NCBI GenBank assembly: GCA_001801025.1 | Contig: MGWO01000003.1 | Location: 190,201-254,200, forward strand | Direction: 5' to 3' | Origin: Gallionellales bacterium GWA2_54_124 | GTDB lineage: Bacteria > Pseudomonadota > Gammaproteobacteria > Burkholderiales > Gallionellaceae | DNA: 64,000 bases | Part shown: piece after piece, positions 60,026-63,526 of the stretch | How positions within the stretch are numbered: the first letter of the stretch is position 1 | Layout of the letters: the number at the start of each line of letters is the position of its first letter | Notes under the pieces: model-generated | What the model was told of the DNA's origin: nothing | Databases searched by the model: none | The model's input: the letters and a program-made list of their open reading frames with translations, nothing else | Program-made: the position numbers and the translations under genes

Positions 60026-60042
60026 TGCCCGATTTTGGTGCA
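60026..60042. promoter_or_regulatory. NtrC-type site upstream of the chemoreceptor gene
   Basis: TGCCCGATTTTGGTGCA matches TGCAC-N7-GTGCA with a single mismatch. Its centre is about 59 bases before the -24 element of the sigma-54 promoter. A second half-site, GGTGCA, follows immediately. Confidence 0.65.
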
Positions 60043-60091
60043 TGGTGCAGCCGGATCAATTAATTCATCTTGATTGCAGAGGGGTTTTTGT

Positions 60092-60107
60092 TGGCACGAT
60101 TATTGCT
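60092..60107 (+). promoter_or_regulatory. consensus sigma-54 promoter upstream of the chemoreceptor gene
   Basis: TGGCACGATTATTGCT is an exact match to TGGCACG-N4-TTGCT, with GG and GC at correct N10 spacing. It lies 33 bases before the ATG at 60140, leaving a leader of about 20 bases. Confidence 0.9.
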
Positions 60108-60139
60108 TTTATTTCTGTACATACCAAGGGGATACTGAC

Positions 60140-62290
60140 ATGTTAAAAAGCCAACAGATGAATTTGAGCAACAGCGAGCGATCCTGGCTTCCCTATTTTG
60201 GCAAGTGCGGTCGCTTGGCGATGGGGTGGGCGTGTCATTTAAATCAATGGCGATATCCTATTCTTGAAGAAATATTCGACTCCATTGCGACCACGCGGGT
60301 CAGAATTTTATCTGAATGGGCAGAGCAGAAGTGGTCCTCACTTTCGGGAATCTCGGCGCAGATTGCACACGACTGGCCAAAATTTGACGCAGAAATACTT
60401 GCGGAAAATATGCGGCTGGATGGTGATTTCTCGGAATTATTCGTGATTAACGCTCAGGGTGTCACACTGTATTCGAGTTGCCGTAGCCGAGTCGGTAAAA
60501 ATGATCTGGACGCAAAGGCGGTCAAGCTGGGACTTGCGGATAAATTTCTGCATGGCCCTTATCTCGATCCTGCAACTGGCGCTCTGGGGGCGACAAGTTC
60601 CCGGTTTCACGATGCCGTGACGCTGATGTTCTACTATCCGCTGCAAAAGGACGGGGTTTTGCTGGGTGCAGTGTGCGGCCGGGTGCCGAATGATGTGCTG
60701 GGTGACCTGATTCAGCGTGAAGCCGGACATATTTTTCACGAATCCGGGGACAACTATTTATTCATGGTGAAAGCGGGATTTGATACGGCAATCAAAGCGG
60801 GCGCCGCATTGTCGCGGTCCCGGTTCGAAGATGCTACTTTCAGTATGGGGGACAACTTAAAGCAAGGTGTGCGTACGGATTTCGGTGTCGTATCGGTTCG
60901 GAATCACACGGAATTCGAGCTGATCTTCAATGATCCTGCGACAGGTCAGCTGCATCCCGGTGTGCGGGAGACGATACGCTGCGGTGAGAATACGTTTGTA
61001 ACCTATCCCGGCTATTCCGATTATCGCCATATTCCGGTGATAGGGCGCGGTATTACTTTTACGCTGCCGGGTTCGATAGATAGCTGGGGGATGATGTGCG
61101 AAGCCGATCTCGAGGAGGTGTATCGTTTCCGCAGTCTTAACTTCAGAATGATGTCTGTGTATCTGGTCATGTGGGTCGCCATGGTGGCCGTCATTTCCGG
61201 TATTGCAGTGATTTTCAAACCTGATGCGCAGGTGATGGCGGGTATTTGCGGCGGATTATTCTTAACAGGCGGTCTCGTGCTGCATCGCTTTGTTGCAAGA
61301 CCTGTCGGGCAACGATTGCGCAGCATGGTCAGTGTGGTTCGGAATGTTGCGGAAGGGCATGGCAATCTGTCACAGCGTCTGGACAGGGGCGATGCCAGTC
61401 GCGATGAAGCCGGGGTTTTGTCACAATGGATCAATAGTCTGATTGATAATATCGACCGTACGGTCGGCAACGTCAGGCGTGGTACGGACGGCATGGTCAA
61501 TAATCAGGCACACATGGATGTGCGCAACAAAGAGGCAACCGCCGCGACAGGCGAAGTGCTGATTGCGGTGCAGGATATTTTGCAGGCGCTGGAAAAACAG
61601 ATGAGCGACATTGAACTGGCAAATCTGACCACCAGTGAAATGCGGCAAGCCATGCAACTGGCAACCGATCGCGCTCGCGCACAAGTCACCATGGTGCAAA
61701 GCCGTACGCAGGATATCCGCGAATCGATCAAGGCGTCTTCGTTGCGTATCCGCTCGCTGGGAGAGAGTACCGAAAAAATCGGTGAGATTGCCGAGGTCAT
61801 CAAGGGCATTGCCGACCAGACTAATTTGCTGGCGCTCAATGCAGCCATTGAGGCAGCGCGTGCAGGTGAATTCGGGCGCGGTTTTTCAGTGGTCGCCGAT
61901 GAAGTGCGTAAACTGGCTGAACGCACCAGCAGCGCGACACATGAAATCAATCTGATGATTGCATCCGTTCAGGACAAGGCGCGCGATGCGGTCGCCATTA
62001 TGGAACACGGCGCGAGCGGTATGGAGGAAGGGTTACGGCTGGCTGAGGCCTCTGCCGCTGACAATTCTGGCTCTGCCGAGATTATTGAACGGATGTTTAC
62101 TACGATTTCGCAGATATCGATGAGTGCAGCGGAGAGCGGCAGCAAGGTGCAGGGCGTTGCACGGACGGCCGACTCGATGAGTGCCGCGGTGGGAGAATTG
62201 AATTTTGCTATTGCGAGCAATCGTGAAGGTACACAAAAGTTACGTCTGCTGGTTAATCAGTTTCAGATTACAGATGTTCACAATCAATAA
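60140..62290 (+). CDS. methyl-accepting chemotaxis protein with N-terminal Cache-like sensor
   Basis: 716 residues from the ATG at 60140. Residues 60-330 resemble a dCache/PDC sensor (FVINAQGVTLYSSCRSRVG, VTLMFYYPLQKDGVLLGAVCGRV). Two membrane helices come only after it (VYLVMWVAMVAVISGIAVIF and VMAGICGGLFLTGGLVLHRFV, about 350-405), then HAMP (VGQRLRSMVSVVRNVAEG) and the signalling domain with IADQTNLLALNAAIEAARAGE. No N-terminal membrane helix or signal peptide is evident, so the sensor would face the cytoplasm, unlike normal Cache receptors. Expression from a sigma-54 promoter with an NtrC-type site suggests it senses a nitrogen-related state. Ligand unknown. Confidence 0.88.
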   Translation: MLKSQQMNLSNSERSWLPYFGKCGRLAMGWACHLNQWRYPILEEIFDSIATTRVRILSEWAEQKWSSLSGISAQIAHDWPKFDAEILAENMRLDGDFSELFVINAQGVTLYSSCRSRVGKNDLDAKAVKLGLADKFLHGPYLDPATGALGATSSRFHDAVTLMFYYPLQKDGVLLGAVCGRVPNDVLGDLIQREAGHIFHESGDNYLFMVKAGFDTAIKAGAALSRSRFEDATFSMGDNLKQGVRTDFGVVSVRNHTEFELIFNDPATGQLHPGVRETIRCGENTFVTYPGYSDYRHIPVIGRGITFTLPGSIDSWGMMCEADLEEVYRFRSLNFRMMSVYLVMWVAMVAVISGIAVIFKPDAQVMAGICGGLFLTGGLVLHRFVARPVGQRLRSMVSVVRNVAEGHGNLSQRLDRGDASRDEAGVLSQWINSLIDNIDRTVGNVRRGTDGMVNNQAHMDVRNKEATAATGEVLIAVQDILQALEKQMSDIELANLTTSEMRQAMQLATDRARAQVTMVQSRTQDIRESIKASSLRIRSLGESTEKIGEIAEVIKGIADQTNLLALNAAIEAARAGEFGRGFSVVADEVRKLAERTSSATHEINLMIASVQDKARDAVAIMEHGASGMEEGLRLAEASAADNSGSAEIIERMFTTISQISMSAAESGSKVQGVARTADSMSAAVGELNFAIASNREGTQKLRLLVNQFQITDVHNQ

Positions 62291-62296
62291 ATTAAG

Positions 62297-63526
62297 ATGA
62301 ATACACATAATTTTAACGCCGTTAACCAGCGGGTCAGCGGCAACACCGGACAGTTCCGTGATTACAGCATAGGCAGTGCATTTCAGCCCATTTTCAGTTT
62401 GTCGCACAGAAATCCGGTCGGCTACGAAGCCCTGTGTCGTGCCAAAAAAAAAGATGGACTGCCGGTATCGCCGCTAGCTTTGTTCGGGCAGGTCAAAGAT
62501 GAGTCGGACAATGTGCTGCTCGACCGATTATGCCGTGCCGTACACGTGCAGAATTTCTCGAAATTTTCAGATGCATCGTGGATTTTCCTGAATGTAAATC
62601 CACTGGTCACGGTTCTGGGTAAAAGTTATGGCTCATTTTTCAAGGAGATGCTCGATCAGAACGGCATTTCACCGAGTCAGGTGGTGGTCGAGATTCTGGA
62701 AAAAGGTATTTACGATGAATCGATTCTGTCGGCTGCGATTAACTACTACAAAAATCTGGGCTGTCTGGTGGCAATCGATGATTTTGGTGCATCGCATTCC
62801 AACTTCGACCGGATTTGGAATATTCAGCCCGACATTGTGAAATTTGATCGCTCGATTATCGTTCAGGCGGAATCGAGTGTCGTCGTGCGCAAAGCCTTGC
62901 CAAGTCTGGTCGGATTAATTCAGGAACTGGGCTGCATTGCCCTGATGGAAGGGGTTGAGACTGAGCAGCAGGCCTTGATTGCGATCGATTCGAATGTCGA
63001 TCTGGTGCAGGGCTATTACTTTGGGTTTCCCCGCGAGCAACTGGTGGAAACGGATGATCCGAACAACATGCTGCTTAAATTGCGCGGTAAACACAACGAG
63101 TTTTCAGCGTCGATCAGAATGCGGTATCGCGATGCAGTAGACCAGTGTCTGATCGAATTCAAGGCCGTGCTACAAGCGATTACTGCCGGGTGTACACCGC
63201 AAATGTTGGGTTGTGAAAGATTGCTCGCCCTGCCCAATGTGATGCGCGTTTACTTTCTGGATGAGGCCGGCTATCAGATTGGCGACAATATCCAGAAACC
63301 GCAGTCGGAGTATATTGATCCTCGTTATAAGCCGCTGGCCGAAGCGGCCGAGGCTAACTGGTCGAGACGTTATTATTTCAGGCAGGCCGTCTTAAATCCG
63401 GGGGAAATACAGATCACCCGCCCTTATCGCTCGCTGACCGGAAAAAGTCAGTGCATCACCATTTCTGCGCTGGTCCATACCCCCTGCGGCATGCTGGTTG
63501 CTTGTCTTGATCTGGACTGGTCATAA
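62297..63526 (+). CDS. EAL cyclic-di-GMP phosphodiesterase with C-terminal sensor-like domain
   Basis: 409 residues, six bases after the chemoreceptor stop. The EAL domain (25-265) keeps all catalytic elements: GYEALCR, FLNVNP, VVEILEKG, AIDDFGASHSNFDR, K in DIVKFDRS, LMEGVETEQQ and VQGYYFGFP, so it is probably active in hydrolysing c-di-GMP. The last 140 residues (NVMRVYFLDEAGYQIGDNI, YYFRQAVLNPGEIQITRPYRS, GMLVACLDLDWS) look like a Cache/PDC-type sensor, comparable to the YkuI C-terminal domain. No membrane segment. Probably co-transcribed with the chemoreceptor from the sigma-54 promoter. Confidence 0.9.
   Translation: MNTHNFNAVNQRVSGNTGQFRDYSIGSAFQPIFSLSHRNPVGYEALCRAKKKDGLPVSPLALFGQVKDESDNVLLDRLCRAVHVQNFSKFSDASWIFLNVNPLVTVLGKSYGSFFKEMLDQNGISPSQVVVEILEKGIYDESILSAAINYYKNLGCLVAIDDFGASHSNFDRIWNIQPDIVKFDRSIIVQAESSVVVRKALPSLVGLIQELGCIALMEGVETEQQALIAIDSNVDLVQGYYFGFPREQLVETDDPNNMLLKLRGKHNEFSASIRMRYRDAVDQCLIEFKAVLQAITAGCTPQMLGCERLLALPNVMRVYFLDEAGYQIGDNIQKPQSEYIDPRYKPLAEAAEANWSRRYYFRQAVLNPGEIQITRPYRSLTGKSQCITISALVHTPCGMLVACLDLDWS

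What the first reader, a model, noticed from the sequence alone, without database searches (positions are those of the whole stretch)
60026..63526. Chemoreceptor and EAL phosphodiesterase appear to be nitrogen-controlled through sigma-54 and NtrC
Seen directly: an exact TGGCACG-N4-TTGCT sigma-54 promoter at 60092, preceded by TGCCC-N7-GTGCA at 60026, one mismatch from the NtrC palindrome. The genes behind it encode a chemoreceptor and an apparently active EAL protein, six bases apart, directly behind porin-glnK-amtB. Known: NtrC activates sigma-54 promoters under nitrogen limitation. Inference: nitrogen shortage would switch on a receptor and lower cyclic-di-GMP, pushing an attached or slow cell into directed swimming toward nitrogen. 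I am not aware of this coupling being described for such organisms.
Basis: partly seen in the sequence, partly recalled or inferred. Interest (0 to 1): 0.8.

Follow-up and report, generated by a model that had tools for sequence, protein, structure and literature searches.

The report
Nitrogen-starvation switch for a chemotaxis receptor
In a close relative of the iron-oxidising bacterium Gallionella, a chemotaxis receptor gene and a gene for a predicted cyclic-di-GMP protein lie six bases apart behind a promoter sequence of the sigma-54/NtrC type, and the same kind of sequence stands in front of this receptor in many other bacteria, so running short of nitrogen would likely change how these cells swim.

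Summary
Observation confirmed and extended. The exact sigma-54 site (60092) and the NtrC-type palindrome (60026) are real. Of 76 non-redundant upstreams of orthologous receptors, mostly beta- and gammaproteobacterial, 67 have a sigma-54-like site and 54 also a palindrome; 6 of 399 control genes have both. An unprompted motif search returns GCAC-N7-GTGC and TGGC-N7-TTGC. NtrC lies in the window; RpoN, CheA and flagellin genes are in the genome. Of 21 other receptor loci checked there, none has such a site. The EAL gene is tied to nitrogen on its own: in relatives it follows amtB, lies between NifA-like and nifB-like genes, or has its own sigma-54/NtrC-type promoter. Two corrections: the sensor is a dCache domain predicted to be cytoplasmic, so 'toward nitrogen' is unsupported and an internal signal more likely; the EAL protein is YkuI-like, with catalytic residues intact but an unusual loop 6, so its activity is open. 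NtrC-dependent chemoreceptors and an NtrC-dependent EAL gene are already reported separately (Pseudomonas stutzeri, Burkholderia cenocepacia). New here: breadth of conservation, the linked pair, the receptor's predicted topology.

The parts
60026..60042 (+). NtrC-type palindrome TGCCCGATTTTGGTGCA, one mismatch from TGCAC-N7-GTGCA
   Evidence: a palindrome with at most two mismatches at -114 to -125 in 15 of 22 family upstreams
60092..60107 (+). sigma-54 element (-24/-12) TGGCACGATTATTGCT, 48 bp before the receptor start
59995..60014 (+). intrinsic terminator behind amtB, in front of the receptor's own promoter
60140..62290 (+). chemoreceptor, 716 aa: dCache sensor (about 30-332), transmembrane hairpin (about 337-385), HAMP (weak match), MCP signalling domain
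62297..63526 (+). EAL protein, 409 aa, YkuI-like: EAL domain plus C-terminal PAS/Cache-like domain
57190..57205 (+). sigma-54 element TGGCACGCATCCTGCT of porin-glnK-amtB (internal yardstick)
57078..57094 (+). NtrC-type palindrome GGCACAAAATCAGTGCA of porin-glnK-amtB
57111..57127 (+). second palindrome TGCGCATATGGTGCGCA (two mismatches) of porin-glnK-amtB
58090..58431 (+). glnK (PII protein)
58442..59950 (+). amtB ammonium transporter
41000..42043 (+). ntrB-like histidine kinase (by position and reading)
42094..43491 (+). ntrC, over the TIGR01818 cut-off (687 bits against 558.6)

Best explanation
The receptor gene (60140-62290) and the EAL gene (62297-63526) lie six bases apart behind a sequence that matches a sigma-54 promoter with an NtrC-type palindrome upstream, so they are likely transcribed together when phosphorylated NtrC signals nitrogen shortage and would then retune swimming. 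Shown by sequence: the two elements, their conservation in front of orthologous receptors, the terminator between them and amtB, and ntrC, rpoN, cheA-type and flagellin genes in the genome. Predicted: the receptor is a membrane-anchored chemoreceptor whose dCache sensor lies in the cytoplasm, so it would report an internal or membrane-permeant signal of nitrogen or metabolic state to the CheA array. Inferred: the YkuI-like EAL partner would lower or sense c-di-GMP, making a starved cell more motile while the receptor steers it. The ligand, the direction of taxis and EAL activity are untested.
For: Elements confirmed. Gallionellaceae: of 158 genomes 23 have the receptor at E <= 1e-40; 22 of the 23 have a readable upstream, and 19 of 22 a sigma-54-like site at -48 to -66. 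Wider set: 102 upstreams, 3 dropped (two short, one with N), 76 non-redundant of 99: 67 sigma-54-like, 54 with palindrome; shuffles mean 3.4 and 0.4; control genes 26 and 6 of 399. Collapsed to 30 clusters at 70% sensor identity: 24 and 21. Unprompted: GCAC-N7-GTGC in 30 of 76 against 0.35 expected; TGGC-N7-TTGC in 42 against 1.4. The core GC-N11-GC equals the spacing published for P. stutzeri NtrC sites (PMC8443478, section 19). The same elements precede porin-glnK-amtB in this window. EAL by itself: own sigma-54 site in 13 of 52 loci and palindrome in 7, against 14 and 2 of 394 control genes (the 52 are not made non-redundant); behind amtB in G068 and G081; between a NifA-like and a nifB-like gene in G006 and G089. 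Tepidiphilus has the order EAL then receptor, with the sigma-54 site before EAL. NtrC, RpoN, flagellin and CheA-type matches present. 0 of 21 other receptor loci of this genome whose starts were within reach have a sigma-54 site with at most two mismatches (two of the 21 look like copies of each other).
Against: 9 of 76 upstreams lack a sigma-54-like site and 13 more lack the palindrome; the Tepidiphilus promoters show no NtrC palindrome in 350 bp. Only the 80 best of 481 confirmed loci were returned and examined. The EAL partner is not general: 13 of 80 named receptor loci show a homologous EAL gene nearby (12 strong, L098 weak), and in the family 9 of the 23 receptor-bearing genomes have the pair. 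EAL loop 6 reads DDFGASHSN instead of DDFG(A/T)GYSS. Two receptor-bearing genomes, G030 and G061, gave no CheA hit, and CheA is common in the family anyway (139 of 158), so it does not discriminate. In P. stutzeri the PST2508 mutant kept 92% nitrogenase activity (PMC2820453, passages). I saw no expression data for this organism.
Confidence: 0.8

Rival explanations
1. Another sigma-54 activator, not NtrC, drives the promoter (for example a NifA-like or motility activator), and the palindrome is shared or incidental.
For: This genome has two further long matches to the NtrC model below its cut-off (372 and 322 bits); Tepidiphilus promoters have a sigma-54 site without the palindrome; EAL lies next to a NifA-like gene in two relatives.
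Against: GCAC-N7-GTGC is the top palindrome in an unprompted search, also precedes glnK-amtB here and has the spacing published for NtrC in P. stutzeri.
Confidence: 0.12
2. The promoter is nitrogen-controlled, but the EAL protein is a c-di-GMP receptor or regulator rather than an active phosphodiesterase.
Against: The eight metal, base and substrate residues examined are invariant in 18 sequences, this one included.
Confidence: 0.4
3. The receptor is nitrogen-induced but serves a chemosensory output other than flagellar taxis, such as attachment or type IV pili.
For: Two of 23 receptor-bearing genomes gave no CheA hit; Gallionella ES-2 has several cheA genes, and its authors allow for chemotaxis-like pathways with other outputs (PMC3770913, passages).
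Against: Flagellin genes and four CheA-type matches in this genome; MCP signalling domain intact.
Confidence: 0.25
4. Chance: the sites are random matches in an intergenic gap.
For: Palindromes with at most one mismatch occur 108 times in the genome, and the sigma-54 motif alone is not enriched in it.
Against: Conservation and controls.
Confidence: 0.01

Closest known systems
PST2508 and PST2280, NtrC-dependent chemoreceptors of Pseudomonas stutzeri A1501 (PMC8443478, section 19; PMC2820453, passages)
   Same: Chemoreceptor genes reduced in an ntrC mutant, with putative NtrC sites (GC-N11-GC spacing); PST2508 is listed among nitrogen fixation-inducible genes. Stutzerimonas genomes carry orthologues of the receptor studied here.
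   Different: No EAL partner in what I read; whether PST2508 is the orthologue could not be tested.
NtrC regulon of Burkholderia cenocepacia H111 (PMC5491218, passages)
   Same: NtrC supports motility, an EAL gene (BCAL0652, -7.2 in the mutant) and a chemoreceptor gene (BCAM1804, -2.9).
   Different: EAL gene and receptor gene have separate locus tags, not one unit; orthology untested.
Bphy_2338 of Paraburkholderia phymatum (PMC5748707, section 18 and passages)
   Different: Promoter and partner not described in what I read; orthology untested.
PII control of c-di-GMP in Azospirillum brasilense (PMC7646526, passages) and AmtE of Azoarcus BH72 (PMC8467165, section 14 and passages)
   Same: Nitrogen status coupled to c-di-GMP proteins and motility.
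   Different: Protein contact, or a fusion of transporter with GGDEF/EAL, rather than NtrC transcription of a receptor-EAL pair.
YkuI of Bacillus subtilis (2W27, 2BAS)
   Same: Same two-domain architecture over nearly the full length.
   Different: 24% identity in the structural alignment; I know of no nitrogen link (recalled).
dCache chemoreceptors such as PctA
   Different: Those sensors are periplasmic between two transmembrane helices (recalled; for TlpA the abstract seen says periplasmic); here no helix precedes the sensor and a hairpin follows it.

Membership tests
NtrC/sigma-54 promoter | -24/-12 element TGGCACG-N4-TTGCW at a plausible distance from the start codon | tested here: met
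   exact at 60092, 48 bp upstream; 67 of 76 orthologue upstreams
NtrC/sigma-54 promoter | NtrC palindrome TGCAC-N7-GTGCA upstream of the -24 element | tested here: met
   one mismatch at 60026; 54 of 76 upstreams with both; top palindrome unprompted
NtrC/sigma-54 promoter | NtrC and RpoN encoded in the genome | tested here: met
NtrC/sigma-54 promoter | binding by NtrC and induction under nitrogen limitation | not testable with these tools
   no expression or binding data for this organism
methyl-accepting chemotaxis protein | MCP signalling domain | tested here: met
   PF00015 127.7 bits, residues 511-681
methyl-accepting chemotaxis protein | HAMP domain after a transmembrane segment | tested here: inconclusive
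   PF00672 21.9 bits, below its cut-off of 25, at 384-438 right behind the hydrophobic hairpin; a homologue in L167 passes with 28.9
dCache sensor | dCache fold | tested here: met
periplasmic dCache chemoreceptor | transmembrane helix before the sensor | tested here: not met
   best 19-residue hydropathy in residues 1-60 is at most 0.75 in 26 aligned receptors, against at least 1.48 in 330-395
active EAL phosphodiesterase | metal, base and substrate residues | tested here: met
   E44 N99 E132 D161 D162 K182 E218 Q238 invariant in 18 sequences; the choice of positions is recalled, and all but the last (Q) are in the list seen in PMC7290235
active EAL phosphodiesterase | canonical loop 6 DDFG(A/T)GYSS (as given in PMC7290235) | tested here: not met
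   DDFGASHSN
YkuI-like EAL protein | EAL plus C-terminal PAS/Cache-like domain in one chain | tested here: met

The most novel reading that the evidence does not exclude
This is an ancient nitrogen-hunger motility module of beta- and gammaproteobacteria: NtrC switches on an internal-state receptor whose cytoplasmic dCache domain reads a nitrogen metabolite, in some lineages together with an EAL enzyme whose own Cache-like domain reads the same or a related metabolite, so one cue both frees the cell from attachment and steers it.
Probability: 0.25. Interest if true: 0.8.

Novelty: new variant of a known kind. Interest (0 to 1): 0.62.

Why it matters
If true, a chemoreceptor family with 2473 database relatives at E <= 0.001, for which I found no assigned ligand, gains a defined physiological setting, nitrogen shortage, in which to look for its signal. 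It would also tie the general nitrogen regulator to taxis and c-di-GMP in one transcription unit, and could explain scattered reports of nitrogen-induced receptors and EAL genes as parts of one conserved response.

Tried and rejected
Chance match: rejected by conservation and by control genes. Read-through from amtB as the only source of transcript: unlikely because of the terminator, not excluded. PP_4888 of P. putida as the orthologue (its transcript rises in nitrogen limitation, PMC7801951, passages): not tested; I looked at the gene neighbours of five Pseudomonas/Stutzerimonas receptor loci, which settled nothing, and no sequence by locus tag was at hand. Sequence search of the sensor against solved structures found nothing reliable (best E 0.53); only the fold comparison did. 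The C-terminal third of the EAL model was barely tested by rows other than YkuI. One search scanned EAL upstreams as if all loci were on the + strand; its minus-strand rows were wrong, and replace it. In one search some EAL frames were mislabelled, and still missed the receptor upstream of EAL in L167; one search puts that right. In one search the profile step failed; only its BLAST part is used. The EAL controls measure from a start codon, the EAL loci from the first aligned residue, so the two are close but not identical measures. Searches for prior description: (open-licence papers only); none of the listings showed a receptor-EAL pair behind an NtrC promoter, but most titles were seen as listings only.
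Full report
What is there. Behind porin-glnK-amtB (57255-59950) an intrinsic terminator (59995-60014) is followed by a palindrome TGCCCGATTTTGGTGCA (60026) and an exact sigma-54 element TGGCACGATTATTGCT (60092), 48 bp before the start codon of a 716-residue chemoreceptor (60140-62290). Six bases later begins a 409-residue EAL protein (62297-63526). The scan for sigma-70-type promoters found none on the + strand between 59900 and the receptor start. 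The same kind of promoter, with two palindromes, precedes porin-glnK-amtB (57078, 57111, 57190). glnA, an ntrB-like gene and ntrC lie in the same window. RpoN, two flagellin matches and four CheA-type matches are in the genome.

Which organism. The closest receptor relative found (96% identical, G017) lies on a contig of 3,162,471 bases; the protein database names a 96% identical protein on a contig of that length as Gallionella capsiferriformans. G017 is listed as of the same genus as the window genome.

More than chance. Each element alone is weak: the sigma-54 motif has five exact sites in the genome against three for the reversed pattern, the palindrome 108 sites with at most one mismatch against 24. 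The test is conservation. Of 158 genomes of the family, 23 have the receptor at E <= 1e-40. One (G143) is a fragment without upstream; of the 22 others, 19 have a sigma-54-like site 48-66 bp before the start, two only a weak one at -136 and one none; 15 have a palindrome with at most two mismatches at -114 to -125. A scan of named genomes confirmed 481 loci and returned the best 80, among them Rhodocyclaceae, Methylophilales, Neisseriales, Zoogloea, Azospira, Marinomonas, Methylophaga, Pseudomonas and Stutzerimonas, by record title. Together 102 upstreams; 3 dropped, 99 used, 76 non-redundant. 67 of 76 have a sigma-54-like site within 30-150 bp and 54 of 76 also a palindrome upstream of it; shuffles gave 3.4 and 0.4 on average, 11 and 3 at most. 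In 399 other genes of 250 or more residues in those loci: 26 and 6. Sequences are related, so I also collapsed them by sensor identity: at 80%, 57 clusters with 50 and 41; at 75%, 47 with 41 and 34; at 70%, 30 with 24 and 21. An unprompted search for gapped palindromes put GCAC-N7-GTGC and CACC-N5-GGTG first (30 and 19 of 76, expected 0.35 and 0.05), and for word pairs TGGC-N8-TGCT and TGGC-N7-TTGC (41 and 42, expected 0.8 and 1.4). The centre, GC-N11-GC, is the spacing given for NtrC-dependent promoters of P. stutzeri (PMC8443478, section 19 read). Those lacking a sigma-54 site are L049, L079, L080, L084, L102, L109, L111, L122 and L128; 13 more lack the palindrome. L109 and L111 (Tepidiphilus) have the gene order EAL then receptor, with the sigma-54 site in front of EAL; L113 there is an exact match, but no NtrC palindrome was found in 350 bp. 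In this genome 36 stretches match the receptor signalling domain and 30 loci were fetched; the start lay within reach in 21 (not in the receptor studied here), and none of the 21, two of which look like copies of each other, has a sigma-54 site with at most two mismatches.

The receptor. Pfam finds the MCP signal domain and a HAMP match below its cut-off, nothing in the first 380 residues. The sensor is very well conserved (mean column identity 74% in 18 family members; 68% in 58 wider ones; the whole protein 64% in 26). The model (58 sequences, pLDDT 81) is a dCache fold. No hydrophobic helix precedes it; two follow it (about 337-359 and 363-385) with K/R-rich flanks (3.6 and 3.2 per 15 residues) and a loop nearly free of K/R (0.27 per 8) in 26 aligned receptors. 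By the positive-inside rule (recalled) sensor and signalling domain are both cytoplasmic. I infer an internal or membrane-permeant ligand.

How it most likely works. Nitrogen shortage, read by PII and NtrB (established knowledge of the Ntr system), yields phosphorylated NtrC. It would bind 60026 and drive sigma-54 RNA polymerase at 60092, as at glnK-amtB. The cell would then add to its many receptors one more, which reports an internal state, and an EAL protein, which would lower or sense c-di-GMP. Net effect: more motile, differently steered cells. Steps after transcription are inferred.

What is already known. In P. stutzeri A1501 PST2508 and PST2280 are NtrC-dependent receptor genes with putative NtrC sites; the PST2508 mutant keeps 92% nitrogenase activity. 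In P. [quoted passage not shown] In B. cenocepacia NtrC supports motility, an EAL gene and a receptor gene. In A. brasilense PII contacts c-di-GMP enzymes, and cheA mutants have less NtrC. In Azoarcus an Amt-GGDEF/EAL gene and motility genes rise without fixed nitrogen. None of these passages joins a receptor and an EAL gene in one unit or shows conservation across classes.

Verdict. Observation confirmed. Regulation very likely as proposed. Behavioural reading partly supported; the 'toward nitrogen' step and the enzyme's activity remain open. New variant of a known kind, interest 0.62.

Noticed in passing
L050:11146-18631 (own genome, behind the window's right end): A minus-strand cluster of proteasome-type, ATP-grasp-like, alpha-E-like and transglutaminase-like genes (by reading; resembles P. 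putida PP_2685-2688, called likely NtrB/NtrC-controlled in PMC7801951) has an exact palindrome TGCACGGTTATCGTGCA 137 bp upstream but no sigma-54 site.
   Followed up: partly
L050:7271-11097 (window 63570 onward): Behind the EAL gene follow a histidine kinase and a second chemoreceptor with similar N-terminal stretches (KVNGPIY, DILPPPEY.IESYLV), suggesting exchange of one sensor between kinase and receptor.
   Followed up: no
window 38821-38859: Two NtrC-type palindromes lie 169 and 147 bp before the glnA start (38990), but no sigma-54 site at a usual distance was found.
   Followed up: no
L154:2846-4174 and L168:3-1316: In two relatives the gene before the EAL gene encodes a dCache_1 match (below cut-off) followed by CheW, another hint of a Cache sensor feeding chemotaxis proteins.
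   Followed up: partly
L151, L152: Order NifA-like gene, EAL gene, nifB-like gene in G006 and G089: a c-di-GMP gene inside what reads as a nitrogen-fixation cluster.
   Followed up: partly
window 57255-58046: A TorF-family putative porin (TIGR02001) precedes glnK-amtB behind the same NtrC-type promoter.
   Followed up: no
G030, G061: These genomes carry the receptor, but the CheA dimerisation domain (PF02895) was not found.
   Followed up: no
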